Source: Sphagnum magellanicum (lineage: Eukaryota; Streptophyta; Sphagnopsida; Sphagnales; Sphagnaceae). Taken from it: a DNA stretch of 64,000 nucleotides. The DNA lies in NCBI GenBank assembly GCA_021904315.1, contig CM038907.1:20157223-20221222 (forward strand), written 5' to 3'. Made by a program: the position numbers and the translations under genes. Positions 12,844 through 45,633 of the stretch are shown here, piece by piece (the first letter of the stretch is position 1; each line of letters starts with the position of its first letter). A model generated the notes under the pieces. It had not been told where the DNA came from, searched no databases, and worked only from the letters and a program-made list of their open reading frames with translations.

Positions 12844-13087
12844 CATGTTGTGATGTGTAGTGTCGTGACGTTCGGTGTCGTAAGGGTGTAAATCCATAGT
12901 AAATTCTATTGAACAAAAAGATTAAAACCAATCAAAGGTAGAAACTAATCAACTAAAAAAAAATGCACGCACATTTATATACAATGCATAAAAGGAAGCT
13001 GAGATGATATTCTCATGAATCCCCCCTCAGACTTGAGCTAGGAAAAACATGGCATGGTCTAAGTAGAAATCAAGGTGTTGTAGGAGA

Positions 13088-13222
13088 ACATGATGAACAG
13101 TACCAAATGCTAGCGGGAACTTGATTGAGCTCTGGTTTAAGGCAGAATAAATGGTATCCACCATTATAATTATCACAAAGCAGCATTTGATCAGCATTGT
13201 TTGTCGTCTGACATACCTAACT
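13088..13222 (-). pseudogene. PHD-type zinc finger at the integrase C-terminus, copy 1
   Basis: The last 50 or so codons before the terminal TGA (13070) have the PHD spacing: (C)xxC, then LLCDNY, GGYHLFC and WYCSSC. Conserved features of PHD fingers seen here are the hydrophobic-CD, the GYHxxC and the WxCxxC ending. The first Cys is Ser here (Cys in copy 2), followed by a TAG. The fourth ligand is Tyr in both copies. PHD fingers usually read histone H3 tails; in this position chromoviral integrases carry a chromodomain. A targeting role is inference. Confidence 0.7.
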
Positions 13223-13289
13223 TGGATAGTCAAGTGGAGGAATCCAAGTCGACATGATGATGGTAGGATCCAAGTTCAATAGGTGGTAG

Positions 13290-14480
13290 GGCGCATAGTT
13301 TTTGGAGTGATCTCGAATTGTGCATCCGTTAGTTCTTTATAACTCCAACACACCTAAAGGCCTGATTGTTTTAATCCTCAAGACAGTGCAACTAGAAAAA
13401 GTGTCTAGAGTATCATTAGGTTGCTATTGGAGATACACAAAGTCACCAACATCAAATTGTCTCACCTTATGTTTGTAACTGCCACCTCGTGTGTGCATAC
13501 CGTAAGGTGTCTCGATGCTGTGCAATGGACAAGTTCTTCATGGCCATGGGCATAACCCTTTTATATAGATCAACCCTCTTTGTGATGACCCTAGCCCAAG
13601 TGGCTGGGGAGTCCAAGTCCACAACCTGGTCCATTTGAGCAGTAATGGAAGAGGGTGGAATGGGATGTCTCCCAAAAAGTAGAAAGTAAGAAACGAAATG
13701 AGACAAAGAGGCGTGTTTGGACATGTAACCCATGGCGATGTAAGGTAGGGCCATGTCCTAATCCTTTTTGTTCCCAGTGAGGCAAATCTTCCAAAGTCCT
13801 TTCTTACATGTCTAAACCATCCTCTCTACAAGGCCATTAGCTTGGGGGTGATCCCTTGAAGTCCGACGTTGGTCAATGAGAGCATGATCAAGTAAGTTTT
13901 GGAATTTTCCTCTAAATTGTGATCCTTGATAAGTAAGGCATTCATCATAAGCCCCAAACCTACTTAGGACTTGTTGTAACAAAGCCTGGCTGGTGCTGTA
14001 TGATGATTTGTTCGGTAGCACAACAAGCTCGATCCACTTTGAAAAATGTTCAATCATAATCATGATGTAGACATTACCCTTGGAGGTTTATGGTAATTTT
14101 CTAGCTAAATCACATGATCAATAATAGAACATGCCTTGAATAGGGAGTGGAGAAAGCGTGAATTGTCAAGAGGAGAAGGAAGTTTTCATTCTATCACATT
14201 ATTCACACCTAGCAATGACGTCTCGGACTTGAGCATACATACTTCTCAATGGTAATGAGGAATGAGAAGGTTATAAATACGCTTAATTCCAAAATGTCCA
14301 AGCTTTGAGTGTACCTTCTAAATAAGACCAGGCTGTTCATGTGGTGGAAAAACCATTTTGTCGCCTTGTAGTAAGCATCGGATGAGGTGATTGTCCCTCC
14401 ATGAATAATGTTTGGACCGATGTTATATGCGATCCCATGGATTTGATGTAATATGGGGAGGGTATTCCCCATGCTGAAGA
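13290..14480 (-). pseudogene. Integrase, copy 1
   Basis: Recognisable parts are the HHCC-like zinc region (about 14200-14340), the core with EHFSKWIELV, and a strand where the second catalytic Asp is expected but reads TYQGSQFRG (Tyr in place of Asp). The glutamate helix reads HPQANGLVERMV. A C-terminal region with GYMSKHASLSHFVSYFLLFG precedes the PHD finger. Several stops and frame changes break it. In the family, integrase inserts the cDNA into the host genome. Confidence 0.85.
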
Positions 14481-14639
14481 AACTTTAGAGTGTCCAAGTC
14501 CTCCCATATATCCACAATGGGATGCTCAACTAGGTTACATTGTAGTAGTGCAAGATAACTAGATGCATAGGATACATGTACTGTTGGAATTTGGTCGAAG
14601 TTTTGCCTAGCTTCTGAGAAATCTTCAGAGGTAGCGAGG

Positions 14640-15120
14640 GGTCTTTGTGACATGGTATCCATGTTTCGATGTGTAATACCAGGTCGGTGAATAACTTTGA
14701 ACTCATATTGCTGAAGTATAAACGCCCAATGAGTTAACTTATCAGTAAGCTTATTGTTGGTCATCAACCACTTAATAGGTTGGTGGTCGTATATAAAGTG
14801 AACTTGGTGCCATAAAGATAGGGCCTGAAATGTATGATGGCCCATATAATAACAAGACACTCCCCTTCATATGAAAAGTAGTTGCTTTTAGCCTTGTTGT
14901 TGCTTAGGGATGCATAGGCGATAACATATTCCTTGCCTTCTTCATTAAGTTGGCCAAGAATAACACCAATATCAAGAGCACTCTAGTAAGTGTGTAGAAT
15001 GAAGACCTTGCTGAAATCAGGTCTTTTCAGAGTGGGGAATTCTGAAAGCTTTTCCTTGAGTGTGTTAAAAGCTTCTTGAGTGTCTTCATTCCATGTCCAA
15101 GTAACATCCTTCTTTAACAA
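14640..15120 (-). pseudogene. RNase H domain of the Ty3/gypsy polyprotein, copy 1
   Basis: Minus-strand frames contain WTWNEDTQEAF, a GQLNEEGKEYVIAYAS segment and HQVHFIYDHQPIKWL, the usual order after a Ty3/gypsy reverse transcriptase. The codon 5' of the AIIHF segment is TGG here, where copy 2 has TGA. Confidence 0.8.
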
Positions 15121-15159
15121 TGCATAGAGAGGATGAGTAATAGTTCTGAAATCTTAGAC

Positions 15160-15790
15160 ATAAATCTTGTAGTAATTACATAGTTCGATGAAGCTCCTTA
15201 AAATGTGAACATTAATAGGATTGGGCATTTTCAAAATGGCTACTACTTTGGCCCAATGAACCATAATACCATTTGGCAAAATTTTGTGTCCAAGGTAGAT
15301 TACTAAGGTGACAACAAACTCATATTTTTTAAGATGGATCTTCATATTAACTTTGTGGAGCCTTTTGAATAACTCCTCAAGATGAGCCAAGTGCTACAAG
15401 AGACCCTTGCTATGCACTAGGACGTCATCTATGTAGCACTTTAGGAAATCCGCCCCTTCAAGAACTTGGTCCATGATTTGTTGAAAGAAGACAAGTGCAT
15501 TCCTCAATCCAAAAGCCATCACAAACCATTCCCACAACTTGTTGCTTCTGTGGAATGTTGTTTTCTTGCGATCCTTCGCAACGAACACAATATGGTTGAA
15601 GCCTTGCTTCAAATCCATAATTGTGAAGATGTTTGAATCTCCAATGTTATCAAACAGTTATTTAGGGATGGGCATGGGGTACCTGTCCTGAAGTGTAACC
15701 ATGTTCAAAGGCCTATAATCTTCGCACATTCTTTTCTCAGTCCATAATCCAATTGAATTTTTTTTTTGCTAGCACAACTGTAACGGTTGT
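15160..15790 (-). pseudogene. Reverse transcriptase, copy 1
   Basis: Family motifs seen: MDLKQGFNHI, NKLWEWFVMAFGLRNA and the catalytic YIDDVLVHS (YIDDV codons at 15421-15435), followed by LEELFKRLHKVNMKIHLKK and LGHKILPNG. The two catalytic Asp of YxDD are intact. The N-terminal part is broken by frameshifts and a T-run near 15760. Confidence 0.9.
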
Positions 15791-16155
15791 GAAATCAGAA
15801 CTTGATGGCAGAATGAGACTAGCTTCATGAAGCTTTTTGCATTTATCATCTACTAGTTTCCACTCATGCTTGCTCAACCTATGCTTCCTTCGTAGATGGA
15901 TGTTTCATCTGTAAGGTCTATAAAGAATTACATGGTCTTACATTTACGTAAGTTTTTCATTGAGAATGCAAACACATTCTCATACATAATTAGTAAGTTT
16001 GTGACCTAGTTTCTTTCTTTCTCAGTGAACTGGTTCCCCATAACAAAAGGGTAGTTGGAAACACATGGAATGGAGTTAGAAAGTGTGTTTGAAGAACTTA
16101 GTGTATTGGGTTCTCCACTATCCAACTGCATAGATTCATAAAAGGTTGTAATTGT

Positions 16156-16347
16156 TTATCTAGAGGTTGATGTACCTCTAGGTGTATTAGAAATAACTTG
16201 AGTCAGATTACATGGTACCTCCTCCCCCCTAACACTAATAGTGAAGTGTAGAGTGTTGAAGATAGGCAAGTGTACATGGTTGGGGTGCCATGTAGTCGCA
16301 TCACCAGAACTGCAAGCTAATTGAATCAGTGCTGGTGTTGTGTACAT
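16156..16347 (-). pseudogene. Linker between methyltransferase and reverse transcriptase, copy 1
   Basis: A 63-codon frame containing WHPNHVHLPIFNTLHF and GEEVPCNLTQVISNTP. Copy 2 has the same segment at 40910-41100, so it belongs to the element. No family is recognised. Confidence 0.5.
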
Positions 16348-17300
16348 TTAAAAGAGTACACAAGTTACCAAGAACAATGTAAGGGAGTTCAGGTCCATGC
16401 TTTTCCCTAGTAGAATGTTACGTTCCAATCTAGTCACCTTGGTGTGATTAGTAGTGCTAGTTTAGAACCCCATAACCCTTTTTCTTTCTTTTGGGCTTGG
16501 TTCATCCCAAGTGGCTGAAGCATGACGATACAAGGTGTGTGCTCTTGGGAAGGAAACAAAGGTGGGCCAAGCACCTCTTGGTTTTCCTATTGTGTTTGCA
16601 GGAAACCAAGAAGGTTTCTCTTGCCTTGTAATTGGTTGGCAAAAATTCAAATCATCCAATATGTGAGAAACCTGCCAGTTGGGGTTTCTGATGGTGTATT
16701 TCAGAGCCAACTACAGAACTGATAGTGGTGCAAGGTTGGTCCACCAGTTGCGTAGCTGGTGCGCATAAGAACCGCATTGTGCTGCATCGAGTAGGAATGA
16801 CTTTCTAAGGTAATGTTTAATTAGTGTGTAGTGCTCCTAGACTTTTTCCTTTTGGTGAAACTAAGAAGGGGTGTTCTCAATTACATACCCAAGCGTAGGA
16901 GAAATGGATTGAGCCCAAGTGATCAATCATACCATGTCCGTGAAGAGACCGGATCTTGTGTCATTCAAGCTTGGTCCAAATCAAGCCATTGAAAATCCTT
17001 GACACTCCTAACTTAAAATGATGGGGTCCACGGGGCCAAATAATTCCATATGCTTCCTCTGAATTAGTTGTAAGTCAGAGGGCAAGAAAGTGAAATTGGC
17101 CTTCCATGTGGTGGTTGCAAACTATTGTGGAAATTTGGTTGTGAGTTCCATCATTCTCGATGCCGCCAGTTTCTTTATAATAGGATCAATGTTTTCGTAG
17201 AAATACTTTCGAATTACCATCCCTAACTATAGTAGGGCTTCGAGACTTGTACCAATACCACCAAGGAATTTTAGTAATGTAATCCCCTCTTTAGGCGGTG
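16325..17300 (-). pseudogene. Cytosine-5 DNA methyltransferase domain inside the Ty3/gypsy polyprotein, copy 1
   Basis: Methyltransferase motifs appear in order on the minus strand. Motif I is ITLLKFLGGIGTSLEALL (about 17230-17285), the SAM-binding FxGxG loop. YFYENIDP follows (motif II-like). Motif IV is ECQGFS (16990-17007), where Cys is the expected nucleophile. Motif VI is GYVIENT (ENT at 16870-16878; family ENV). Motif VIII is LLDAAQCGSYAHQLRN (16738-16794). Then a target-recognition-like region, EPSPKERKRVMGF (near 16462-16500) and RxxxLLGKSMDLNSL (16381-16440, motif X-like). Stops lie between several motifs, including a TAG just before ECQ. The AAQ...HQLRNWW spacing recalls the Dnmt3/DRM type more than Dnmt1. 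It is dead, but its ancestor was probably an enzyme. Confidence 0.85.
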
Positions 17301-17689
17301 TCCAAGTGATTAGTTGATGAAATACTGGCTTAATTAGTTCGCCATGGCTCTCCATGTTTTCAAAAAGACAAAGCTTTGACCAAGGGTTCGTGGGCTGCTT
17401 TGAACCTCTATAAAACTTCTGGTCCGTGTTGAATGTCAATAGTAACCACCCTCGAGCTTTTAGTAGCTTGGGCGTAAGTTGTTTCTTCTTCATTTCCTTT
17501 TATCCACTCGTGGCTAACTTGTTAGATGTAAGAAATAGTGTGTGCTTCCTTGAGCATAAAATGGTGAACCATAAGATTATGGTTCCCATGTAAATCAAAG
17601 GGTATGTATCCCAAGTGGTGTCCATTAGTCTCCCAATCCACTCAGTAGTACGCATGCTCGAATTAGTTGTCAATTGTGAAACTTAGTGG

Positions 17690-18430
17690 AAACAAGGCCT
17701 CTTGCCTATGAGCATATCGTAACTGGTGGCATTGGTGATTAAACATTTGACCTGTAGGTAAAGCTCTCGATCTGTACCTTCATTGAAATTAAATGCAATC
17801 AAATTCGAACTCTCCCTAGGTACCTCTTTTACACTCCACTAGTGATGCAAATTTGCCACATAGATTTCTGTAGTTTGGAATCAAACATGCCCATCTTCTT
17901 CGCAAATTGAACTCCTAGAATCATTAGTTGGGCACTTATATTAAGAAGTACCACTTTGGGTGTATGTCCTCCCACCTGGATTGTTGATTTAGTATTGTCA
18001 ACAATGGCAACTTCGATGGCGATGGAAGTTCTTTCACTAGGCACCACCTTCGGAAATGAGTGAGAGACTTTGTGGAAAGAATGGCTATCCACAACCCCTT
18101 TGTTGAGTAGCAAATCCACAAGTGAGGTGTTCTTAGCTCCCTTCTGATATGTGAATGTAGAATCAAAGGTAGGAGAGCCCATTAGTTTAGCCATGCTAGA
18201 ACTATTGATCAGATTACGAACGCCATTTACAACACATGAGCTAATCGAGTGTCTCTCCAAGGTGTTAGATGGAACCCTTGTAACATGTGGATCAAGGATT
18301 GGTAGAGGACCTGATGTAGTGTTCAAGGTATCCTTTAGTACTGCAATTATGTCCTTGGTGTTTAGCTTCAAATCTTGAAAACTAAACAATGGTGTATTCA
18401 CAAGCTTTTGCGCCACTTCACGCATTTGAA
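17690..18430 (-). pseudogene. Aspartic protease region, copy 1
   Basis: A 198-codon frame ends in a retroviral-type aspartic protease region. The strand VVLLNISAQLMILG aligns with the usual hydrophobic-D-(T/S)-G/S-A flap, but the catalytic Asp is Asn in this copy (AAT), and also in copy 2. After a stop, the region continues with ATSYDMLIGK, the second conserved strand of these proteases. Confidence 0.7.
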
Positions 18431-19119
18431 GTTGGCACTCTATAAGCTGATCAGTGGAAAATTATGTGTTTTCCTGATGTACATGTACTCTTGGGACATG
18501 AGAATTTGATGTCCTAGTAGCTTGTGGTGTAGTTGTTTCCTCCCCCCTCGCCAAGAAGGTGCGTTCTTTTTCCATGTTGAGAGGATGAAAATATTGTGGC
18601 ATGACTATTCGAGCTCCTCTAGCCCTGGTAATAGGACTTGAACTAGATGCGAATCCATCAGTCTGAATTACCTATCAAATGGCAGAAACTTTGGGCGCCA
18701 CACTAGCCTCTTGTGTCGCAAAGTAGGAAGGGTAAAAAGAAGTGGCAAATTCTGGTGTGAGATTATAATTGTGTGCATTGGAAAAACATACTCCCTAACC
18801 ATGGCATCGTGTGAGAAGCCATAAAACAACCTAGGAGGTCCTTTTCATGATCTTGAACCCTGTATAGGTTGGGCATGACTAGCTAGTTGGGAATACTTGT
18901 TTTTTTAGATTAGCAAGTTGGGCCTTCAATGATTCGAGTTCATTTTATAGAGTTTGAACTTGAGCGACACAGGCTTGAAGCGCCTCCCTCTTATTAGCAT
19001 TATGTTCCTTCTTCTTAGCATTCTTACTAAAATTACGCTTGGTGAGGAAAGCCTAAGTGCCTTAGGTTTTGGTTGAAGGGCAACGGAAGATGCTGGCAAA
19101 TTTTGTTGTGGTAATCGGA

Positions 19120-20429
19120 GTTACTTCCATTTCAGGAACTTGGCAAAACAAAGAGCTTCTTGATGTCCCTCTTTCTCACAATAATCACAAAAGAGATCCT
19201 TGGAAGGAATGTTACATTCATTAGCTTTGTGGGCAGGATTGCCATAGTAGTTGGAAGAAGGTAGGATGGGTGCAACCAAATGCACCACTTTAGTCCTTGA
19301 AGAAGAATGTGATGATCTGGTTGGCGCAGCTAGTGGAAGTTGAGGCCTTGAACGTGATGGAGGCCTGATAGTACTGGCCTCATAGTGTGCATGAACAAAT
19401 TCCAACTTTAAAAAAATGGTGTACACATTTTGTAAAGTGTATAAGTTTCCAAATTTTGTAAAAACCCGTTGCAAAACCTACACATGGAGTGTCGGAGTAC
19501 TTTCCAACAAACAAAGATATCGATGGGCACCTTCCAAGTTTGTGATGTTGTTAGTATCCTTTTTGAGCTTGAGAAGCCTCCTGTAGAACATCTTGAGGGT
19601 TTCATCCTTTTGCCAAAAGACGGTGGTGAGCTGAAGAATTTTTTTAAAACTCTTAACCGGAAATTCTAGCTCAAGAATTCGAAAGAATTCCCCCATTAAA
19701 TCAGCAAAAGCTGGTGCATCAATGGTGGGAAGAATGTTTGTGGTAGTAGTAATGAATTGTTGAGGAAAAAGGTTTACTAAAATAGGTATCGAATTTAGAT
19801 TATTGGGCATAGTCCCATGACGTGCAATGGTAGTTTGCACTGTAACTTGAGACGCGACGGCGATGATTGTGGCATAAGCTAAATTGGGGATTTGGGTGAT
19901 GCTCAAAATCCTCGGAGAATGTTACTCTGGACATCCAATGCCTCATAGTGCACATAACATGTCAGTTTTTGAATGCGAATGCTTCGGTGTAATTAACGCC
20001 ATACTTGAGTTCTAATTCACAAACCACAGTTGAGAAAGTTGCCTTGAATTCCTTCAAAAAAATGGTACCTGGCCTTTCGTTGAACTTTTCAATTCTCCCA
20101 GAGGAACTTTTGACCTCCATGGTGTATATGGGTGTAGAGGTAATGGCTTGCAATGGAATATATGGTGATGGTGTGAAAGTTGGTGTGGCAACAGGCGTAC
20201 CCCACTAATTAACCTCTCCAAATGGACTCTGATGAACCGTTGATGTAATGTAACCTGAACTTGATTTCCTGGTAGGAGTTGTACTAAATGATGGTGGTGC
20301 TATAGATGTTTGATGGTACCATTGTGAAGATTGGGAGATTAAAGAAATCGGCTCAAATGATTGTGTGTTACTTCATAGCTGATACCTTGGTTCTAGTTAA
20401 ACAGTAATGTTCTCATCATCCGAGGACAT
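19120..20429 (-). pseudogene. gag with CCHC zinc knuckles, copy 1
   Basis: The ATG at 20429-20427 opens MSSDDENITV, then meets a stop. Capsid-like sequence follows (GRIEKFNERPGTIFLKEFKA, then FADLMGEFFRILELEFP). Near the end lies an intact zinc knuckle, CDYCEKEGHQEALC (C-x2-C-x4-H-x4-C, 19148-19189). A second, damaged knuckle just before it (SNYYGNPAHKANEC) has lost its first two Cys. The start was chosen because both copies have ATG-TCC-TC there after a shared leader. Broken by several frameshifts. Confidence 0.8.
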
Positions 20430-21702
20430 GGTGTTGTCCCATGCCCCAAAATTCTGTAGTAATATAAAGCACTAACTACAAAGTTTTAACACAACATACA
20501 GTTTGAAAAATATGGTGCGTCGACGGGGATGAACGGCAATAGACAGATGTCGGTTGATAGAATTGTGAAGGATGTTAGATGAAAAGGCGAGAGACCTCGG
20601 ATGGAATGATAATGGACATCGGATGAAATAATGACAAACGTTAGATGGAACGAGTGGACGGACAACGACTGCGATAGCGACAACCGGTGACTGCAATGGT
20701 GACAATGACGTTTGCAATGGTGAGGGCCGATGACTATGATGACGACGACCGATGACTTCATTAGCAACAACGCTAAAGAGCGATCTGCATCTGCGAACTT
20801 TGTAGTAATGGTGTGCAGAAGAGGAGATAATTTTATTTTTCTTCTATTACGTGTTTTTTTATTTAAATTTTCTTCTTTTTCCAAAGCTATTACACGAGCT
20901 ACTCACTACATGACTGCAAGTTCAAAAACACATAAGAGTGCACAACCCAGATGCTAACCTCAAAACCCATGTACAAGGAAAGTAAGTGTATGTGGGGTTG
21001 CATCACCTGGTGCAGATCTTGTATTGCAATCAAACCTTATGTGTGTGTGTGTGCATGTTCCCAAGACCTAAAGCTAGCGATAAAACAAGCTTTGGAGCTG
21101 CTCACTCCTTCCTCCCTTCGAAGCTCTAGAATTTACAACTTTAGAGGTTGTAGCTTGTTTTCAATGTCCCTTCTCCCTCACTTGCGTTGATGTTAATTAT
21201 GGTTATTGTTATTCCTATTGTAGCTGTAGTACAAAAGTAGAAAAAGAAGAAGAAATAGTAGCAATTCAAAAACACAAGAAACCAACAAGCAAAAGAAACC
21301 CAAAAAACTCAAAGCTAGGAATTTTTTTTCACTTTCAACATTAAGTGATAAAGAACAATTTTTTTAGAATTAAATTGAAAAGAAGGAAAGAAAACATAGT
21401 GTATGTAAACGGTGGCCATGCAACAGTCGCAGTGAGCATCTAGAAATCTAGTCTAACTATGGAGGAAATTTTTCCTAACAAAGGAATTCTTGAAAAAATC
21501 ACAAGAGAAGGGAAGAGCTTGGCCTTTTATATAATTGTCAATGAAGCTGAAACCTTAAATAAGCCATAACCCTAAAATACCTAATAACGTATAATAACCT
21601 AAAAACGTACATTAACCCTAAGAGCATACATTAACACTAAAGGCATGATTGGCATGCCTGTAACCGATTGTCATGTATGAGGCCATGCATACATGCATGA
21701 CA
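20430..21702 (-). promoter_or_regulatory. Promoter and leader of Ty3/gypsy copy 1 (5' LTR remnant)
   Basis: Shared with copy 2 from a TGTCATGC word at 21702 to the gag ATG. It has a TATATAAAAGG box (21523-21533) and a GC-richer stretch with degenerate GATGG/CGAT repeats (20520-20760). The site near 20490, where copy 2 carries an 822-base insertion, is uninterrupted here. The primer-binding site was not identified with confidence. Confidence 0.6.
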
Positions 21703-34729: not shown

Positions 34730-34738
34730 AAACTTGCG

Positions 34739-36793
34739 TGTCATGCCCGTATGCATGGCCTAATACATGACGATCGATTACAAGCATGCCAATCATGTCT
34801 TTTAGGGTTAATGTACATTCTTAAGTTACTGCACGTTATTAGGTGTTTTAAGGTTATGGCTTGTTTAAGGTTTCAACTTGTTGACGGCTGTATAAAAGGC
34901 CAAGCTATTCCCTTTTCTTGTTAGTTTTTCTAAAATTCCTTTGTCAGGGAAAGTTTCCTCCATAGTCAGATTAAATTTCTAGATGCTCACGGCGGCTATT
35001 GCATGGCCACCGTTTACATACACTACATTTTCTTTCCTTCTTTTCAATTTAATTCTAGAAAAATTGCTCTTTGTTACTTAATGTTGAAAGTGACAAATTT
35101 TTCTTGGCTTTGAGTTTTTTGGGTTTTTTTTATTTGATGGTTTTTTATGTTCTTGAATTGTTGTTACTTTTTTTTTTTCTACTCTTGTACTGCAATTACA
35201 CCAGGAACAATAACAACCATAACTAACTACAATGTAAGTGAGGGAGAAGGGACACTAGAAACAAGTTACAAGCTGTGAAGTTATGAGTTCCGGAATTTCG
35301 GAGAAAGGAAGGAGTGAATAGTTCCAAAGCTTGTTTTATTGTTAGCTTTAGGTCTTGCGAGCATGCACACGCACACACACAAGGTTTGATTACAGTACAA
35401 GATCTGCACCAGGTGATGCAACCCCATATACATTTACTTTCCTTCTACATGGGTTTTGAGGTTAACATTTGGGTTGTGCACTCTTGTGTGTTTTTGAGCT
35501 TGTAGTCATGTATTGAGTAGCCCTTGTAGCAGCTCTAGAATAAGAAAAAGAAGAAGAAAATTTTTATAAAAAAACACGAAGTAGGAAAAAAAAATTTCTT
35601 TCTTCTTTTTTGCATGCCATCACTGCAAAGCTTGCGGACATAAACCGTTTTGTAACACCATCATTAGTGCAGTTTGTTGCAACCGTAATCTATTCCGTTT
35701 TGCCATCTCGTTCCGTCGTTCCATATGGTGTTTGTCCTTGTTTTGTCCGACCTTCGTTGTCGTTTCGTCCAAACTCCGTCATCGTCCGTTCGTTTGTCTG
35801 GTTCCATCCGTCTGGCCCCTTCCATCCGTTGACGTTCGTCCATAGACGCCTATTTGTCATTGTTCACCCCCGTCGACGCACCATATTCTTCAAACCATAT
35901 GTTGTGTTAAAACTTTGTTGACGCGCTCCCAAGTCACGGGGTGAAACCCACTTGAGGGTTCCACAAAGTCAAGTTGCGGAAAGTTTAGACTCGGAGGCAC
36001 GCTCCCGGCTTCCAACTCTAGAAAGGGGTAGAGGGTCGAATTGGGAGCCCTGGGATTAGACTAGGAAGAGGGACTAGCTTAGCTCGTGTGAATTTGCATC
36101 CAAAAACCAACCACAAGAGGTTAGTTTAGCATTCGGGACACCCTTTGGTGTTGGGATTTGCCACAGGCACTTGGACACACAAGACTCACCATGGCCCGGA
36201 CTCGGGAGTAAGCCACCACCTTATTCCCTATAGTATTCTCTGTAGCTCGCCATGGGGACTACATCCAAATGGCACATTTTGTTGGGACTCCCGAAATGGA
36301 GTCCCAAAATTGTCCCGGCGGGACTCCCGAAACTTTTGAATGGCCATAACTCCCGACTGCAGAGTCCGATTACAACAAGGTCTAAACCAAAGTTGTAGCC
36401 CTCGTCGAGATCTTTCCAACGCCGTGTCGCATTCTCAATTCGGACGTCGGAAACAGGTCGATTCCCGACTTTTAGTGGTCAGGAGTCAAACTGCCAGTTT
36501 GACGCCCGACCCTTCTTTTGCCCATAACTTGGGCTACAGATGTCCAAATTGCCAATGCGAGGCCATTTTCGATATCTACGTTTCAAGAACTTTTCAATGA
36601 CACCAAGAACGCCCCAATGCAAGGTGTTTTGAGCCTTGCTGTCGAGCTCTAAACATTTGGGAGTCCCGGAGGACTCTAAGTCCCCAACTTTGGAAGTGTT
36701 GGGCTTCACCCCCACACTTGGCCAAAGTGGGGTTGCGACATTTGTAGTTAGTGCTTTGTATTATTACAAAATTTTAGGGCATGGAAAAACACC
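34739..36793 (+). promoter_or_regulatory. Promoter and leader of Ty3/gypsy copy 2 (5' LTR remnant)
   Basis: TATAAAA at 34891-34897, in the context GGCTGTATAAAAGGCC, would place transcription start near 34920. CCGT-rich degenerate repeats lie at 35700-35870. The block 35880-35918 continues at 36741 after the nested insertion, as shown by the uninterrupted copy 1 sequence near 20480-20500. Confidence 0.6.
35919..36740 (+). mobile_element. Solo LTR (822 bases) nested in the leader of Ty3/gypsy copy 2
   Basis: The insert begins TGACGCGCTCCC and ends GGTTGCGACA, giving TG...CA ends with near-inverted termini (TGACGC / GCGACA). It is flanked by the 5-base direct repeat TTTGT (35914-35918 and 36741-36745). 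Copy 1 has the empty site with one TTTGT. It is much more GC-rich than its surroundings and has no coding capacity. These are the hallmarks of a solo LTR left by recombination. Orientation is unknown; strand is given as +. The parent family is not seen elsewhere in the window. Confidence 0.85.
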
Positions 36794-38185
36794 ATGTCCT
36801 CAAATGATGAAAGCACTATTGCTCACCTAGAGCCAAGTCATCAACTACAAAGTAACACACAATCATTTGAACTGATTTCATTGAACTCATGATTTTCATG
36901 ATGGTACCATCAAACATCTATAGCACCACTGTCATCTAGTACAACTCCTACCAAGAATTGAGGTTTAGGTTACATTACATCAATGGTACACCAAAGTCCA
37001 TTTGGAGGGGTTAATTAGTAAGGTACGGTTGCTACCACACCAGCTTTCACACCATCACCGTATATTCCGTTGCAAGCCATTACCTCTACACCCATATACG
37101 CCATGGAGGTTAGAAGTTCCTTTGGGGAGAATTGAAAAGTTCAGTAGAAGGCTAGGTACCATTTCTTTGATGGAATTCAAGGCAACTTTTTCAACTATGG
37201 TTTGTGAATTGGAACTCAAGTATGGCGCTAACTACACTGAGACGTTCGCGTTCAAACAATTGGCCCATTATGTGCACTATGAGGCAATGGATGTCTATGA
37301 GCAACATTCTTTGAGGATTTTGGGTGTCACCCAGATCCCTAATCCAGTTTATGCCACAGCCATCGCCATCACCTCTTAAGTTACACTGCAAGTTGCCATT
37401 GCACGTCATGGGATTGTGCCCAATAATCTAGATTCGGTAACTACTTCACTAAACCTTTCTCCTCAACAACTCATTATTCCTACCATAAACATTCCTCCCA
37501 CCATCGATGCACTATCTTTTGCTGATCTAGTGGGGGAATTCCTTCGAGTTCTTGAATTGGAATTTCCAATTAATAGTTTTGAAAAAAAATTAAGCTTGCC
37601 ACTTTTTTTCGATAAAAAGATGAAACCTTCAAGATGTTCCACATGAGGCTTCTCAAACTGAAAGAGGATACTAAAAGCATCATAGACCTGGAAGTTGCCC
37701 ATCGGTATCCTCGTTCGTTGGAAGGTATTCTGACATTCCATGTGCAAGTTTTATAATGGGTTTTTGTAGAATTTGGAGACTCATACACTTTCTTGGATGT
37801 GTACAACATTTATAAAAAGTTGGAATTTACTCATGCACACTATGAGGCCAGTACTATCAAGCCTCCATCATGTTCAAGGCCTTAATTTCCACCAGTTACA
37901 CCAACTAGATCATCACATTCTTCTTCAAGGGTTAAAGCGATGCATTTGGCTCCACCTATCCTACCTTCTTGCAACTACTATGGCAATCCTCGCCACAAAA
38001 TTAGTAAGTGCAACATTCCTTCCAAGGATTTCTTTTGTGATTATTGTGGGAAAGAGGGACATCAGGAAGCTCTCTATTTTGCCAAGTTTTTGGAACGAAA
38101 GCAACTCCAATTACCATGGCAAAATCTGCTAGCATTTTCCGTTCTCCTTAAACCAAAACCCAAGGAACTTCAACTTTTCACTTAA
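36794..38185 (+). pseudogene. gag with CCHC zinc knuckles, copy 2
   Basis: Opens with MSSNDESTIAHLEPS and stops after about 32 codons. It continues in other frames with GRIEKFSRRLGTIS, ELKYGANYTETFAFK and FADLVGEFLRVLELEFPI. Two knuckles lie at 37970-38077: CNYYGNPRHKISKC, with the second Cys lost, and CDYCGKEGHQEALY, with the last Cys lost. Gag packages element RNA; this copy cannot make a full protein. Confidence 0.8.
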
Positions 38186-38779
38186 GTTTTCCGCACCAAG
38201 GGTAATTCCAGTAAGAATGATAAGAAGAAGGAGCACAATGCTAACAAAAGGGAGGTGCTTCAAGGCCATGCTACTCAAGTTTAAACTCTATAAAATGATT
38301 CGAATCATTGAGGGCCCAACTTGTTAATTTAAAAGGCAAGTCTTTCCAACTAGCTAGTCATACCCAACTTGTACAGGGTTCAGGATCACATGAGGGACCT
38401 TTTAGGTCGTTCTATGGCCTTTCACACGATGCCATGGTTGGGGAGTATGTTTTTTCCAGTGCACATAATTGTACTCTCACATTAGAATTTGCCACTTCTT
38501 TTTGCCCTTCTTACTTCGCAACATAAAAGGTTAGTGTGGCACCTAGATTTTCTACCACTAGGCAGGTAATTTACACTGATGGACTCACATCTGGTTTAAG
38601 TCTTATCACCAAGGTTAAAGGAGCTCGAATAGTCATACCACAATCTTTTCGTCCTCTCAACATGGGAGAAGAACACACCTTGTTGGTGAAGGGGGAGGAG
38701 ACTACTACACCACAAGCTGCTAGGGTATCAAATTCTCGTGTCCCGAGAGTACATGTACAATAGAAAAACACATAATTTT

Positions 38780-39551
38780 CCACTTATCAGCTTATGGAAT
38801 GCCAACTTCAAATGCGTGAAGTGACGCAAAAGTTTGTGAATACATTGTTGTTTAGTTTTCAAGATTTGAAGTTAAACACCAAAGACATAATTGCAGTACT
38901 AAAGGATACCCTAAACACTACATTAGGTCCTTTACCAATCCTTGATCCACATGCTACAAGGGTCCCATCCAACACCTTGGAGAAACACTCGATTGGTTCA
39001 TGTGTTGTAGATGGCTTTCGTAATCTGGTCACTATTTCTAGCATGGCTAAACTAATGGGCTCTCATACCTCTGATTCTACATTCACATATAAGGAGTTAA
39101 GAACACTTCACTTATGGATTTGTTATTCAGCAAAAGCATTGTGGATAGCCATTCTTTCCACAAAGTTTTTCAATCATTTTCAAAGGTGGTGCCTAATGAG
39201 AAAACTTCCATCGCCACTGAAGTTGCCATTGTCGATAATACTAAGTCAACAATCCAGGTGGGAGGACATACACCCAGAGTGGTACTTCTTAATACAAGTG
39301 CCCAACTAGTGATTCTAGGAGTTCAATTTGCCAAGAAGATGGGCATGCTTGATTCCAAACTACGGAAATCTATGTGGCAAATTCGCACCACTAGTGGGAG
39401 TGTAGAAGAGGTACCTAGGGAGAGTTCGAATTTGATTGCATTTAACTTCAATGAAGGTACAGATCGAGAGCTTTACCTACAGGTCAAATGTTTAGTCACC
39501 AATGCCACCAGTTACGATGTGCTCATTGGCAAGAAGCCATGTTTCCACTAG
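38780..39551 (+). pseudogene. Aspartic protease region, copy 2
   Basis: A frame from 38794 (MECQLQMREVTQKF) shifts near 39100 into a second frame ending at 39551. The protease strand reads VVLLNTSAQLVILG, with Asn where the catalytic Asp is expected, then FNEGTDRELYLQVKCLV and ATSYDVLIGKKPCFH. The same Asp-to-Asn change is in copy 1, so it predates their separation or reflects recurrent G-to-A change. Confidence 0.7.
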
Positions 39552-39929
39552 GTTTCACAATTGACAATTAGTTTGAGCATGCGTACTACTGAGTGGATTA
39601 AGAGACTAATGGACACCACTTGGGATACATACCCTTTGATTTACATAGAACCATAGTCCTATGCCTCACCATTGTATGTTCAAGGAAGCACACATTATTT
39701 CTTACATCTAACAAGCTAGCCACGAGTGGATAGAGGGAGACGAAGAGGAAATAGCTTATGGCCAAGTTACTAAAAGTTTGAGGGTTGTTCCTATTGACAT
39801 TCAATAAGGACCAAAGGTTTTACAAAGGTTTAAAGCAACCCACGAGCCCTTGGTCAAAGTTTTGTCTAATTTTGAAAACATGGAGAACCATGGTGAACCG
39901 ATTAAGCCAATACTTTGTTAACTAATCAC

Positions 39930-40940
39930 TTGGATATCGCATAAGGAAGGGATTACATTATTAGAGTTTTTTGGTGGTATTGGTACAAGTCTCGAAGCCT
40001 TATTATAATTAGGATGGTGGTTATAGGTATTTTTATGTCGACATTGATCTTATTACAAGGCAAGTGCCAACATCGAAAATTATGGAGCTCATAACCAAAT
40101 TTCCATAATAATTTATAACCACTACATGGAAGGCTAGTTTCATTTTCTTACCTTCTAACATATAATTAATTCAGAAAAAACATATGGAATTACTTGGCCC
40201 TGTGGATTTCATCATTTTAGGTTAAGAGTGTCAAGGATTTTCAGGGGCTGGATTTTGGACAAGACTTAAGTGACACAAAATCCGGTCTCTTCATGGACAT
40301 TGTACAATGGATCACCTGGGTTCAATCCATTTTTCCTACGTTTGGTTATGTAATTGAGAACACCCCTTTTCAACTTGACCAAAAGGAGAAAGCCCAAGAG
40401 CACTACATGTTGGTCAAGCATTACCTTGGGGAGCCGTTCCTACTCAATGCAGCACAATGTGATTCCTATACGCACCAGTTGCGCAACTGGTGGACCAACT
40501 TCACACCACTCTCAGTTCTATAGTTATCTCTTAAATACACCATGAGAAACCCCAACCTATAAGTTTATGACATATTGGATGATTAGAACTCCTACCAACT
40601 AGTTACAAGGCAAGAGAAACCTCCTTGGTTTCCTATGAACACAATAGGAAAACCAAGAGGTGCTTGGCCCACCTTTGTCTCCTTCCCAGGAGCACATGTT
40701 TTTCAGGGAGATGGACCAGGCCTGATGTATCACATGCTGCAATCACTTGGGATGAATTAAGCCCAGAAGAAAGAGAAACGGTTATGGGGTTCTAAACTCG
40801 CACTACTAGGCATAACAAGGTGATAAGATTGGAACGTAACACTCTACTGGGGAAAGGCATGGACCCGAACTCCCTTACATGGTTGTTCGTAAGCTATGTA
40901 CTCATTCAAATGTACACAACACTAGCATTAGTTCAATCAA
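39930..40940 (+). pseudogene. Cytosine-5 DNA methyltransferase domain inside the Ty3/gypsy polyprotein, copy 2
   Basis: Motif I is ITLLEFFGGIGTSLEALL (39952-40008). YFYVDIDLITRQV follows (SAM-ribose-binding acidic strand). HMELLGPVDFIILG leads, after a TAA, into ECQGFSGAG (motif IV, 40226-40243). Then GLFMDIVQWITW, GYVIENTPF (motif VI; ENT 40356-40364), LLNAAQCDSYTHQLRN (motif VIII, about 40440-40502), and RLERNTLLGKGMDPNSLTW (motif X-like, about 40823-40890). The same motifs in the same order in copy 1 make chance unlikely. The Pro of the usual PCQ is Glu in both copies. The upstream neighbour is protease, the downstream neighbour RT. Frameshifts and stops make it inactive. Confidence 0.88.
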
Positions 40941-41263
40941 TTGGCACATCTGGCGATGCGGCTACATGGCACCCCGACCAAGTACATTTGCTTATTTTCA
41001 ACACTCTGCACTTCAGTATTAGTGTTGGGGAGGAGGTACCATGTAATTTGACTCAAGTTGTTTCTAATACACTTAGAGTTACATCAATTTTTAGAGAAAC
41101 AATTATAACCTTTTATGAATTTGTGCAGTTGGATAGTGGAGAACCTAATACATTAGGTTTTTCAAACACACTTTCCAACTCCATTCCATGTGTTTCCAAC
41201 TACCCTTTTGTTATGGGGAACCAACTCACCAAGAAGGAGAAAGCTAAGTCACAAACTTGCTAA
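40941..41263 (+). pseudogene. Linker between methyltransferase and reverse transcriptase, copy 2
   Basis: Contains WHPDQVHLLIFNTLHF and GEEVPCNLTQVVSNT, conserved with copy 1, followed by SNTLSNSIPCVSNYPFVMGN. Function unknown; it could be an extension of the methyltransferase or the N-terminal part of RT. Confidence 0.5.
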
Positions 41264-41489
41264 TTAAATATGGAAATGTGTTCACATTTTCAATGAAAGA
41301 TTTAGGTAGATGTAAAACCATGCAATTCTCTACAGACCTTACAAATGAAACACCCATCTACGGAAGAAGCATAGGTTGAATAAGCGTGAGTGGGAACTGG
41401 TAGATGACAGATGCAAAGAGTTCCATGAAGTCGGTCTCATTTAGCCATCAAGTTTTGATTTCATAGCCGTTACACTAATGCTAGCAAAA

Positions 41490-42080
41490 AAATATTTAGC
41501 TGGATAATGGACTAAAAAAAAGATGTGCGAGGATTATAGGCCTTTGATCTTGGTTACACCTTAGGACAAGGACCCCATGCCCATCCTTGAAGAACTGTTT
41601 GATAACATTGGAGACTGAAACATCTTCATAATTATGGATTTGAAACAAGGCTTTAACTAGATTGTGCTCGTTGCGAAAGATTACAAGAAAATGACATTCC
41701 ACGGAAGCAACAAGTTGTGGGAATGGCTTGTGATGCCTTTTAGATTAAAGAATGCACCTATCTTCTTTCAACGAGTCATGGACCAAATTCTCAAAAGGGC
41801 AGATTTTTTGAAGTGTTACATAGATGACGTCCTAGTGCATAGCAAAGGATTCTTGCAACACTTGGCTCATCTTGAGGAGTTACTCAAAAGGCTCCACAAA
41901 GTCAATATGAAGATCCATCCTAAAAAGTGTGAGTTTGTTGTCACTTCAGTAGTCTACCTTGGACACAGAATTTTGCCAAATGGTATTATGGCCCATTGGG
42001 CCAAAGTAGTAGCCATTTTGGAGATGCCTAATCCTACTGATGTTCACATTTTGAGGAGCTTCATAAAAAATATGTAATTA
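41490..42080 (+). pseudogene. Reverse transcriptase, copy 2
   Basis: Contains CEDYRPL, PMPILEELFDNIGD, MDLKQGFN, NKLWEWLVMPFRLKNAPIFF and YIDDVLVHS (YIDD at 41817-41828), then LEELLKRLHKVNMKIHPKKC and LGHRILPNG. All are in Ty3/gypsy order. The YIDD Asp pair is intact. A TGA after NIGD and a TAG after KQGFN break the fingers/palm region. Confidence 0.92.
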
Positions 42081-42129
42081 CTATAAGATTTATGTCTAAG
42101 ACTTCAGTATTATTGCTCATCCTCTCTAT

Positions 42130-42640
42130 GCATTGTTAAAGAAGCATCTTGCTTGGACATGGATTGAAGACACTCAGGAAGCTTTTAACACACTCAAGGA
42201 AAAGCTTTCAAAGTTCCCCATTTTGAGAAGACCTAATTTCAACAAGGTCTTCATTCTACACACTTACTGGAATGCTCTTGATATTAATGTTATTCTTGGC
42301 CAACTTGATGAGGAAAGCAAGGAATATGTTATTGCCTATGCATCCCAAAAAAATAATAAGGCTAAAAGCAATTACTCTTTATACAAGGGGGAATGTCTTG
42401 TTGTTATATGAGCCATCATACATTTTAGGCCTTATCTTTATGGCATCAAATTCACTTTGTATACCAACCATTAGCCTATTAAGTGGTTGATACCAACGAC
42501 AAGCTTATTGGTAAGTTAGTTCGTTGGGCGCATATACTTCAAGAGTATGAGTTCAAGGTTATTCACCAACCTAGTATTACACATCAGAATGCGGATACCA
42601 TGTCGTGGAGACCTTTCACTACTTCTGAAGATTTTTTAGA
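42130..42640 (+). pseudogene. RNase H domain, copy 2
   Basis: Contains WTWIEDTQEAFNTLKEKL, LDINVILGQLDEESKEYVIA, then CLVVI, a TGA at 42409-42411 (TGG in copy 1) and AIIHFRPYLYGIKFTLYT. It is followed by WAHILQEYEFKVIH and ADTMSWRPF. The TGA is a clear G-to-A change against copy 1. Confidence 0.85.
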
Positions 42641-42889
42641 AGCCAAGCAAGACTTTGACTAGATTCCAGCAATACATGTATCTTATGCATTTAGTTATTT
42701 TCCACTACTATAATGTAACCTGGTTGAACATCCCATCGTGGATATATGGGAGGACTTGGACATTCTGAAGTTTCTTCAGCATGGGGAATACCCTCCCCAA
42801 GTTACACCGAATCAACGGGATCGCATACAACAACGGTCCAAATGCTACTCATGGAAGGACAATCATCTCGTCTGATATTTACCACAAGG

Positions 42890-43990
42890 TGAAAAAGTGA
42901 TGCCTCCACCACATGAACAACTTGGTTTTACAGAAGGTACATTCAAAGTTTGGACACTTTGGAGTTAAACATACTTATAGCCTTCTCACTTTTCATTACC
43001 ATTGGAAAGGTATGTATGCTCAAGTCTATGACATTATTGCTAGGTGTGAACAATGTGATAGAGTGAGAACTTCCTTCTCCTCTTGATAGCTCATACTTTC
43101 TTCACACCCTATTCATGGCATGTTCAATCACTGGTCATGTGATTTAGCTGGAAAATTACCACAGACCTCCAGGGTAACGTTTATATCATGATTATGATTG
43201 AACATTTTTCAATGTGGGTCGAGCTTGTTGTGTTGCTGGACAAGTCATCATACAACACCAGCCATGTTTTCTTACAATAAGTCTTAAGTAGGTTTGGGGC
43301 TTGTGCTGAGTGCCTTATTAATCAAGGATTAGAATTTAGAGGAGAATTCCAAGACCTACTTGATCATGCTCTCATTGACCATCACCAAACTTCAAGGGAT
43401 CATCCCCAGGTTAATGGCCTTACAGAGAGGATGGTTTAGACATGCAAGAAAAGACTTTGGAAAATTTGCCTCACTGGGAACAAAGAGGATTGGGACTTGG
43501 CCCTACTTTACATCGCCATGGGTTATAGGATGTCCAAACATGCTTATTTGTCTCATTTCTCTCCTTACTTTCTACTTTTTCAGAAACATCCCATTCCACC
43601 TTCTTCCATTATTGTTCAAATGGACCAAGTTGTGGACTTGGACTCCCTAGCCACTTAGGTTAGGGTCATCACAGAAAGGGCTGTTCTATTCGGGAAGGTT
43701 ATGCCCATGGCCATGGAAAACTTGTTCATTACATAACATCGAGCCACCTTATAGTATGCACACATATGAAGTGGCAGTTACAAACCTAAAGTGAAACAAT
43801 TTGATATTGATGACTTTGTGTATTTCCAACAGAAACCTAATGATACTCTAGACACTACTTCCAGTCGCACTATTTTGAGGATTAAGGCGATCAAGCCTTC
43901 AAGTGTGTTGGAGTTGCAAGGAGTTGATGAACGTCCAATTCGAGTTCATTCCAAAAATAGTGCACCCTGCCACCTACTAAACTTGGATCC
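42890..43990 (+). pseudogene. Integrase, copy 2
   Basis: The HHCC zinc region is intact (His at 42954 and 42970, Cys at 43045 and 43054; motif HFGVKH...CEQC). The core has CDLAGKLP with the first Asp and MIEHFSMWVELVVL. INQGLEFRG has Asn in place of the second catalytic Asp, and HPQVNGLTERMV keeps the Glu. A TAA at 43278-43280 is CAA in copy 1. The C-terminal part (KQFDIDDFVYFQQ, LELQGVDERPIRVHSKN) leads directly into the PHD finger. Confidence 0.87.
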
Positions 43991-44033
43991 TACCATCATC
44001 ACCTCGACTTGGATTCCTCCACTTGACTATCCA

Positions 44034-44168
44034 TGTCAAGTATGTCAAAGGATAAACAATGTTGATCAAATATTTTTTTGCGATAATTATAATGGTGGAT
44101 ACTATCTATTCTGCCTCAAGCCAGAACCCACTCAAGTTCCCACTGACATTTGGTACTGTTCATCATGT
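44034..44168 (+). pseudogene. PHD-type zinc finger at the integrase C-terminus, copy 2
   Basis: The frame 43791-44186 is uninterrupted and ends with CQVC, IFFCDNY, GGYYLFC and WYCSSC. The spacing matches C4HC3 PHD fingers: Cys pair, CDxC-type pair, GYHxxC, WxCxxC. Here the fourth Cys is Tyr and the His is Tyr; copy 1 keeps the His and loses the first Cys. Together they point to a complete ancestral finger except possibly at the fourth ligand. Confidence 0.72.
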
Positions 44169-44416
44169 TTTCTTGCAGCACCTTGATTTCTACTTAGACC
44201 ATGCCACACTTTTCCTAGCAAAGGTTTAGGGGGGGGATACATGAGAATTTCATCTCAGCTTTCTCTTGTGCATTGTATATATATGTGTGTGCATCTCTTT
44301 TTGGTTGATTAGTTTTCACCTTTGATTGGTTTTAGTCTTATTTTTCAGTAGAGTTTATTATGGATTTACACCCTTATGACACCGAATGTCACAACACTAC
44401 ACATCACGACATGTGT

Positions 44417-45396
44417 TTGAACATTTTTTCTCTTTGAATTGTGAAGTACAAATTGTTGCTGCCTTATATACTATTACCATGGATAACAATTTGATGATAT
44501 GAGAGGTTGACTGTTCTGTGTTTGTAATCAAGTAGAGACAAGGAAAATGATTTGTTCCCTAACTTTGAATTGTGAACTAGAAAATGTTGCTCCCTTGTGT
44601 ATATTATTACCATGCGGATAAAAAAATTGATGATCTGAGAGACTGGCCAGTCTAGCCAGCTTCCGTTCTATAAAGGAAAGTCAAAAAGGTGAACTGATGA
44701 CTAAAGAGATCCAGCTGAAAAATGTGCCCACACATTAAAAAATTTCTGAAGTGTTTAGCCTAGTCCTGAATCAGGACTAGCTACTTGTATGGACTGTCAA
44801 GAGAAGATCATTCTCATTTTGAGTAGAACTTCTCTAGTACTCTCTAATACAAAAGCTGTGCAAGACTTTACGGCAGCAGTATGGCTATAAGTCATACGTG
44901 TGATAAAAGAAAACGGTAAGTACTATAGGTATAACCTCATGAGTTGTTATAACTTGTCTTTTGTTGTTTCTCAAAGGGGAAGTAGCTCTAATTTTAATCA
45001 TTTTTTCCTAGTACACGGCATCTGGTGGAAAAAGGAATCTAGCTAGAGTTCAAAACATGAGCTGATTGAGTGCGAGCTTTCAATCAGGACTCTCACAACA
45101 CAGCAAATTTATGAGCTCCTAAGACCTCAGCTGTGATCATACCATGATCTGCTAATTCTTTAACGGTACAGTTCACATGATCTGCACCCTTTAATCTCTG
45201 TAACAGCTAATCTAAAGATTTTGCAACTGTAATTAATCTGCTTTTCAGTTGAACTAGCTTAATCCTATAGATGAAACTGAATGTATTTACAGCGGTTTGA
45301 AATTAGAGGAGAGGCCCACTATGAAATAATTTATCATTACAGGGAGTTCGTATTAAGACAAATTAATGAGATTAATGATCTAGTACTCTTCCACAA
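44417..45396. other. Spacer with a short tandem duplication
   Basis: Two imperfect units at 44432-44515 and 44562-44652 share TTTGAATTGTGAA, GTTGCT, CTATTACCAT/TATTATTACCATG and TTGATGATATGAGAG. No gene recognised. Confidence 0.55.
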
Positions 45397-45633
45397 GAAT
45401 CTTTTTTGGCATTCCCTGCAGGGAAAAAGAGTGGAAACCTCTCACTAATTAAAGTTGAACTAACAAAACATAGGGAAAGCTCTCCAAGGGAATCGTGGGA
45501 ACAATATTCCGATGTTGTATTCTAATTTTCGCATTGTGAAAGAGAGGGATTAGTGTATTTCCCATTGTCAAACAGACCATTTCATGTTTGCACAGGGAAA
45601 ATTCAAGTTCTTCTCGATGGTCCCACAGGGAAA
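45397..45633 (+). repeat. Direct repeat D, left copy, upstream of the IDD gene
   Basis: Aligns over its whole length with 50120-50362. Shared blocks include TTAAAGTTGAACTAACAAAACA, CCATTGTCAAACA and TTCAAGTTCTTCTCGATGGTCCCACAGGGAAA. Non-coding. The copies flank the IDD gene in the same orientation, 4.7 kb apart. Confidence 0.9.

What the first reader, a model, noticed from the sequence alone, without database searches (positions are those of the whole stretch)
39930..40940. A Ty3/gypsy retrotransposon family carries a cytosine-5 DNA methyltransferase domain between protease and reverse transcriptase
Motif I (FFGGIGTSLEALL), an acidic YFYVDID strand, motif IV (ECQGFS), motif VI (YVIENT), motif VIII (AAQCDSYTHQLRN) and a motif X-like LLGKGMD occur in family order. 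The same set is at 16325-17300 in the opposite-strand copy, so the domain belongs to the element. Such captures are, as I recall, known from a few algal and protist retrotransposons. A writer enzyme in a land-plant element could let it methylate its own copies or its target sites.
Basis: partly seen in the sequence, partly recalled or inferred. Interest (0 to 1): 0.92.

Follow-up and report, generated by a model that had tools for sequence, protein, structure and literature searches.

The report
Moss retrotransposon carrying a DNA methyltransferase
A family of jumping genes in this moss-like genome carries its own DNA-methylating enzyme plus a chromatin-reading finger, and relatives sit in liverworts and green algae, although one published article says such elements are absent from land plants.

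Summary
Confirmed. Window copies 34739-44411 (+) and 12846-21702 (-) are decayed copies of one Ty3/gypsy-like family: gag-PR-MT-RT-RNase H-IN-PHD. A profile of 56 methyltransferase (MT) domains without this genome's loci hits copy A at 3.2e-83, copy B at 1.6e-47, three shuffles not at all. Intact copies match DNMT3A best among solved structures. A lower-bound search found 109 MT matches, 10 full length without stops. The MT is constrained like RT and integrase (dN/dS 0.21).

Repeats run A-coding-B-GC-A-B or A-coding-B, with exact 4-bp target duplications in 8 of 10 copies. KnitGypsy-Dnmt3 of Klebsormidium has this repeat plan, so the kind is known. New here: land-plant members (Sphagnum, Calypogeia, Marchantia); a C-terminal PHD finger; two Pol layouts (PR-MT-RT, RT-MT-IN) that change once on the MT tree; frequent loss of the motif-IV proline while the catalytic Cys stays.

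Most likely the MT methylates the element's cDNA or insertion site. Activity is unproven: KnitGypsy's domain was silent in yeast, which its authors call inconclusive.

The parts
34739..44411 (+). copy B, short form (A-coding-B), starts TGTCATGCCCG, ends CACATCACGACA
34735..34738 (.). 5' target duplication TGCG of copy B (3' partner TGTG at 44412-44415; 3 of 4 bases match)
34739..35100 (+). stretch of copy B that matches the 5' part of other copies at about 73-76%; repeat A proper is about 310 bp in L010, L014 and L023
37125..37855 (+). gag capsid-like region, copy B
   Evidence: tblastn
37946..38110 (+). gag zinc-knuckle region, copy B
   Evidence: tblastn
39243..39646 (+). aspartic protease, copy B
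   Evidence: tblastn; gag-asp_proteas on L009
39922..40909 (+). DNMT3-like cytosine-5 methyltransferase domain, copy B (motif IV ECQ at 40226-40234)
41311..42210 (+). reverse transcriptase, copy B
   Evidence: tblastn; RVT_1 on L009
42271..42689 (+). RNase H, copy B
   Evidence: tblastn
42910..43466 (+). integrase (H2C2 zinc domain and rve core), copy B
   Evidence: tblastn
44013..44183 (+). C-terminal PHD finger, copy B
   Evidence: tblastn; PF00628 8.5e-12 on L009
44234..44411 (+). repeat B of copy B (length of 178 bp inferred from L010)
   Evidence: for the length, for the end
12846..21702 (-). copy A, short form, flanked by an exact 4-bp duplication TGGG (on the - strand)
19370..20117 (-). 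gag capsid-like region, copy A
   Evidence: tblastn
17585..17990 (-). protease, copy A
   Evidence: tblastn
16351..17313 (-). methyltransferase domain, copy A (single frame, 9 stops)
15043..15942 (-). reverse transcriptase, copy A
   Evidence: tblastn
14564..14982 (-). RNase H, copy A
   Evidence: tblastn
13785..14368 (-). integrase, copy A
   Evidence: tblastn
13073..13243 (-). PHD finger, copy A
   Evidence: tblastn

Best explanation
The window holds two decayed copies of an autonomous Ty3/gypsy-type retrotransposon with split direct repeats (A-coding-B-A-B) whose Pol carries a DNMT3-like cytosine-5 methyltransferase and, after the integrase, a PHD finger. Shown here: the domain is real, recurs in a wide lineage of such elements, and is under purifying selection like RT and IN; copies with open frames and nearly identical repeats exist, which points to recent insertion. 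Inferred: as a Pol domain it is packed with RT and IN, and methylates the freshly made cDNA or the flanking insertion site before or at integration; the PHD finger steers the integrase to a histone H3 tail state. A pre-methylated copy would look like host heterochromatin or escape recognition as foreign DNA. Step likelihoods: DNMT3-like domain 0.97; functional trait of the element 0.9; catalytically active 0.65; acts on own cDNA or insertion site 0.5.
For: Profile hits. Catalytic Cys in 62 of 62 aligned rows; in the 59 element rows motif VI Glu 59, motif VI Asn 58, and both motif VIII Arg 58 of the 58 rows with a letter. dN/dS: MT 0.208 (95% 0.142-0.305; 11 of 15 loci), RT 0.268, IN 0.158, PHD 0.109, against 0.51 and 0.57 for two linkers. 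MT and RT distances covary (32 rows, Mantel r 0.711, 0 of 2000 permutations). In long-form copies L010, L014 and L023 the two A repeats are 99.7, 98.7 and 96.8% identical over their longest matching piece. Exact 4-bp duplications in 8 of 10 copies. Precedent for activity: SymbioDIRS-Dnmt3 domains methylate CG in yeast (PMC5890265 passages).
Against: Motif IV is ECQ, not PCQ, in this family; I recall no known activity for such a motif. The KnitGypsy-Dnmt3 domain gave no methylation in yeast (authors: inconclusive). The C-to-T differences of the window copies in CG and CHG are what host methylation alone would give and are no evidence for the element's enzyme. The dN/dS loci were picked for open frames and by an MT profile, which may favour conserved MTs. 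No expression or methylome data were available, and no structure could be predicted.
Confidence: 0.55

Rival explanations
1. The MT fold is kept but catalytically altered or inactive; it serves as a nucleic-acid or cofactor-binding part of Pol, and the glutamate in motif IV marks that change.
For: The motif-IV proline is replaced by E, D or A in 29 of 62 aligned rows, with at least 8 changes on the tree; KnitGypsy's domain was silent in yeast.
Against: The catalytic Cys (62 of 62), motif VI Glu (59 of 59 element rows) and motif VIII Arg residues (58 of 58 with a letter) are kept, which an inactive fold would not need; a second family in the same genome has PCQ.
Confidence: 0.25
2. The methyltransferase acts on the host or on rivals: methylating host DNA to blunt silencing, silencing competing elements, or defending the cell against DNA viruses.
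For: PMC6338049 (passages) speculates on an antiviral role of transposon-encoded methylases; a Pol-borne enzyme would reach the nucleus (inference).
Against: Pol domains mostly act within the particle (general knowledge). In the 15 family-1 loci of 9.9 kb the similarity to the window element runs on both sides of the MT, so none of these 15 looks like a free-standing, domesticated MT gene; the other places fetched were too short to tell.
Confidence: 0.12
3. Two independent captures of related DNMT3-like genes, one in the layout with MT after RNase H and one in the layout with MT after protease, and not one capture with one move.
For: Layout splits cleanly on the MT tree; only one DNMT3A and two host DRMs stood as outgroups, so a host DNMT3 could lie between the two. 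The earlier 62-row MT tree left the PR-MT-RT subgroups unresolved.
Against: Element MTs are one side of a 99/98 branch against the outgroups and mostly share GW[PE]CQ, HRLRNxWTN and ERERAMG-like text; RT, IN and PHD of the two layouts are homologous too.
Confidence: 0.3

Closest known systems
KnitGypsy-Dnmt3 of Klebsormidium nitens (de Mendoza et al. 2018, PMC5890265; abstract and passages seen)
   Same: Dnmt3-type domain in the Pol frame of a gypsy-type element; repeats in DIRS-like order; purifying selection on the DNMT (Ka/Ks below 0.2 there); unrearranged motif order.
   Different: The word PHD does not occur in its main text; its DNMT position and motif IV letters are not in the text I saw; reported from one charophyte and read there as an independent capture. 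A 2025 paper by the same group (PMC12344493, passage) speaks of LTR Copia and DIRS elements in streptophytes and dinoflagellates. Its sequence was not at hand, so kinship with the window family is untested.
SymbioDIRS-Dnmt3 and SymbioLINE-Dnmt of Symbiodinium (PMC5890265 passages)
   Same: Retrotransposon-borne DNMT; split repeats in SymbioDIRS; proven CG methylation for SymbioDIRS.
   Different: Tyrosine recombinase or LINE machinery; here an rve integrase with 4-bp duplications.
REM1 of Chlamydomonas (recalled; a passage of PMC2774666, says its integrase is truncated and in reverse frame and keeps the chromodomain)
   Same: Green-algal gypsy-type element with a chromatin-reader domain (a PHD finger there is recalled, from no call).
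   Different: Here the integrase is in forward frame with the PHD finger after it, and there is a methyltransferase.
Domains rearranged methyltransferases (DRM) of the same genome
   Same: DNMT3-related (recalled) host methyltransferases.
   Different: Motif X precedes motif I in L026, L027 and L032; the element's order is I-IV-VI-VIII-X, so it is not a recent copy of a host DRM.

Membership tests
Ty3/gypsy (Metaviridae) | Pol order RT-RNase H-integrase with rve core | tested here: met
   RVT_1, RT_RNaseH, Integrase_H2C2, rve in that order in L009 and L024
Ty3/gypsy (Metaviridae) | TG...CA ends with short target duplication | tested here: met
   TGTC...GACA; 4-bp duplication exact in 8 of 10 copies, 3 of 4 bases in wB, absent in L017
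Ty3/gypsy (Metaviridae) | one full LTR at each end | tested here: not met
   A-coding-B-GC-A-B in L010, L014, L023, L024; A-coding-B in wA, wB, L009, L017, L018, L025
DIRS order | split direct repeats A-coding-B-A-B | tested here: met
DIRS order | tyrosine recombinase and no target duplication | tested here: not met
   rve integrase found, no phage-integrase hit in the 9 pieces scanned; duplications present
C5-MTase, DNMT3 subfamily | motifs I, IV, VI, VIII, X in canonical order, best match DNMT3 | tested here: met
C5-MTase, DNMT3 subfamily | motif IV PC(N/Q) | tested here: not met
   ECQ in the window family (Cys kept); PCQ in the second family L024
C5-MTase, DNMT3 subfamily | methyl transfer to cytosine | not testable with these tools
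   needs expression
DRM | rearranged motif order | tested here: not met
KnitGypsy-Dnmt3 | Dnmt3 in a gypsy Pol with DIRS-like repeats | tested here: met
KnitGypsy-Dnmt3 | same clade by sequence, same DNMT position in Pol | not tested
Chromoviruses | chromodomain after integrase | tested here: not met
   PHD finger and no chromodomain hit in the pieces scanned

The most novel reading that the evidence does not exclude
A single capture of a DNMT3-like enzyme, near the base of green plants, founded one lineage of split-repeat gypsy elements that carries both a methylation writer and a histone reader (PHD) in Pol. It reached or persisted in chlorophytes, Closterium, liverworts and mosses, moved once inside Pol (after RNase H to after protease, or the reverse), and repeatedly changed its catalytic-loop proline to glutamate, giving a mobile and recently active de novo methylation system in land plants that may have tuned its chemistry many times.
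Probability: 0.35. Interest if true: 0.86.

Novelty: new variant of a known kind. Interest (0 to 1): 0.72.

Why it matters
[quoted passage not shown] Here they are present in moss and liverwort sequences, including Marchantia polymorpha, a genetic model. That makes it testable in a tractable land plant whether a retrotransposon writes its own methylation, how this meets the host's own methylation, and whether ECQ methyltransferases work. Counts of host DNMT3 genes in bryophytes made by profile search may also be inflated by these elements.

Tried and rejected
Rejected: chance motif match (shuffles); single-copy accident (109 matches); capture from a host DRM (motif order); a close viral or bacterial source (hits in viral contigs and genome contigs other than L056 are 22-49% over part of the domain; those scans used two short peptide patterns each); standard LTR reading. 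My first reading of the short form as a novel integration product was dropped: recombination between repeats B1 and B2 gives the same product, and I cannot tell the two apart. I assumed at first that PR-MT-RT was the general layout; one search showed the opposite in 31 of the 31 proteins that have both domains.

Led nowhere: structure prediction; counts of the second family and a search for MT-less relatives in the genome (unanswered; one search had a wrong frame); ten paper searches listed no paper that I recognised as reporting these elements in land plants. I read few of the listed papers, and subscription journals and preprints are not held, so this is no proof of absence in print.

Full report
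Setting. The window is a 64-kb stretch of a 439-Mb genome in 31 contigs. Two copies of one element lie in opposite orientation, 34739-44411 (+) and 12846-21702 (-), 84.7% identical over 7.7 kb.

The observation. Motifs I, the acidic strand, IV, VI, VIII and X are present in both copies (the acidic strand is weaker in copy A). Copy A's MT lies in one frame with 9 stops; copy B's needs three frames. A profile of 56 MT rows without this genome's loci gave 3.2e-83 for copy A and 1.6e-47 and 4.3e-27 for two frames of copy B, and nothing in 3 block-shuffled windows.

Intact relatives. PF00145 has 124 matches in the genome, a number of them in open frames over 1000 aa. I fetched 20 stretches of 9.9 kb and smaller ones. 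Of 28 loci compared, 19 are the window's family (fam1), 3 are a second family (fam2), and 6 rows (4 places) are neither: by their motifs three are DRM genes and one is MET1-like. L009 has an uninterrupted 2379-aa frame. A search with its MT gave 109 matches (108 places) at 79-100% identity, 10 of them full length without a stop; only 108 of 1136 first-look candidates were scored, and the window's own copies are not in the list, so the real number is higher.

Domains. L009: protease, PF00145 (1.4e-9), RVT_1, RNase H, Integrase_H2C2, rve, and a C-terminal PHD finger (8.5e-12). L024 (fam2): PF00145 at 2.9e-13, RVT_1, RNase H, integrase, PHD at 1.2e-8; a protease DSGA motif but no protease hit. 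The MT's best solved relatives are DNMT3A, 3C and 3B; with the profile, DNMT3A at 7.6e-20, then DRM over the motif I-IV half, then HhaI. The PHD finger's best solved relatives include KMT2D, KMT2C, KDM5 and UHRF1 fingers; that it reads an H3 tail is inference.

Ends. L010, L014 and L023 have A (about 310 bp)-coding-B (172-179 bp)-GC-A-B, the last A and B contiguous. Copies wA, wB, L009, L017 and L018 have A-coding-B only. Both forms are flanked by 4-bp duplications: exact in L009, L010, L014, L018, L023 and wA, 3 of 4 bases in wB, absent in L017. Fam2 shows the same two forms: L024 long (TTTC; its second A holds extra sequence), L025 short (CTTG). In all, 8 of 10 are exact, and in 10000 re-pairings no exchanged pair matched. 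The B-GC-A junction reads GACAGCTGTC in L010, L014 and L024, GACAGCTATC in L023. L056, a 9.2-kb contig in a bin titled Synechococcales, closes on itself by a 45-bp overlap and has the same element type and a junction CACGACA-GC-TGTCACGG. The short form may come from B-B recombination; a direct product is not excluded. KnitGypsy-Dnmt3 is described with the same repeat order (PMC5890265, figure legend).

Selection and decay. Pooled dN/dS among 15 fam1 loci, each domain where it was covered by one open segment: MT 0.208 (95% 0.142-0.305; 11 loci), RT 0.268 (12), IN 0.158 (10), PHD 0.109 (13), RNase H 0.428 (14), protease 0.314 (11), gag 0.317 (5), MT-RT linker 0.574 (11; upper bound above 1), gag linker 0.508 (9), but the PR-MT linker 0.170 (15). 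Loci were chosen for open frames and by an MT profile. Against L009, copy B has T where L009 has C (either strand) at 33% of CG, 36% of CHG and 15% of CHH sites (copy A 31, 33 and 13%), against 6% for the opposite change at A/T sites; taking the window copy as reference the figures are 19, 18 and 7% in copy B against 15%. L009 against L010 and L014 shows no such lean. This is the mark of long-lasting methylation in CG and CHG, which host enzymes explain.

Relatives and range. MT region of L009: 33 proteins, each with another element domain (32 in the Pfam column, P0001); named are Chromochloris, Haematococcus and Monoraphidium. MT profile: 372 proteins, 120 listed, only the 8000 candidates with most shared words scored; named are Calypogeia fissa, Sphagnum compactum, Closterium, Cymbomonas and Chromochloris. 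MT of L024: 67 proteins, among them Marchantia polymorpha, Calypogeia, Sphagnum troendelagicum, S. jensenii, Closterium, Monoraphidium, and one titled Obscuribacterales. In Closterium NIES-54, P0094 joins a copia-type gag to such an MT.

Two layouts. In 31 of 31 proteins with both domains, the MT follows RT; PHD was found in 29 of the 33 and follows IN in 29 of 29. Of 214 MT sequences (213 proteins and L056), 44 are RT/RH-MT-IN (type I), 41 are PR-MT-RT (type II), and 129 cannot be told. Named type I rows are chlorophytes (Chromochloris, Haematococcus, Monoraphidium); named type II rows are bryophytes or Closterium, apart from L056 with its bacterial title. On an MT tree of 63 rows (57 with a known layout; redundant, short and most undetermined rows left out) type II is one clade (96/89) and layout changes once; the type I side has no support of its own (41/0), and the bootstrap had not settled. 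The earlier 62-row MT tree left the type II subgroups unresolved. On the RT tree (37 rows) the 7 type II rows are one clade (100/99). MT and RT distances covary (32 rows, r 0.711, 0 of 2000), in part perhaps because of this split. Element MTs are parted from DNMT3A and two DRMs at 98-99%, but host DNMT3 of green plants was not available, so one capture is favoured, not shown. Horizontal spread is not excluded.

Motif IV. The residue before the catalytic Cys is P in 33, E in 26, D in 2 and A in 1 of 62 aligned rows (3 of them outgroups, all P); Cys is there in 62 of 62. At least 8 changes are needed, 10 on a quick tree without those columns. Fam1 is ECQ in the 11 MTs aligned. I recall no biochemical work on such a motif; I did not search for it.

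How it probably works. Shown: the element codes for the domain, keeps it under selection, and has copies with open frames and nearly identical repeats. Inferred: as a Pol part it enters the particle with RT and IN and methylates cDNA or the insertion site; the PHD finger biases integration. SymbioDIRS-Dnmt3 domains methylate CG in yeast, while the KnitGypsy-Dnmt3 and SymbioLINE domains did not, which the authors call inconclusive because DNMT3B failed as well (PMC5890265 passage).

Papers seen. PMC5890265: abstract and passages. PMC6338049, PMC12344493, PMC2774666: passages. Others: search listings only.

Noticed in passing
G000 C14:10653126-10662055 (L024/L035), C18 (L025), C8 (L004): A second family with canonical PCQ, the same Pol domains, repeat plan and 4-bp duplications (L024, L025; L004 is only a short stretch); relatives in Marchantia and Calypogeia.
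   Followed up: partly
L056 (genome contigs, bin titled Synechococcales); P0168 (titled Obscuribacterales): Methyltransferase sequences of this element lineage sit in records titled as bacteria, most likely binning errors; L056 closes on itself.
   Followed up: partly
P0094 (Closterium sp. NIES-54): A copia-type gag (PF14223, 1.6e-17) joined to the same kind of MT: perhaps a transfer of the domain between element superfamilies.
   Followed up: partly
window 35639-36740: Leader of copy B is about 800 bp longer than that of copy A (20483-20789) and holds repeated GACTCCCGA-like text; leaders vary between copies.
   Followed up: no
window 50848-50923 (-): ARAGORN calls a tRNA-Ala (anticodon CGC).
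   Followed up: no
window 48816-49979 (+): Open frame of 388 codons outside the elements, not identified.
   Followed up: no
window 45395-45633 and 50119-50362; 10379-10791 and 31787-32193: Two further repeat pairs at 84-87% identity outside the two element copies.
   Followed up: no
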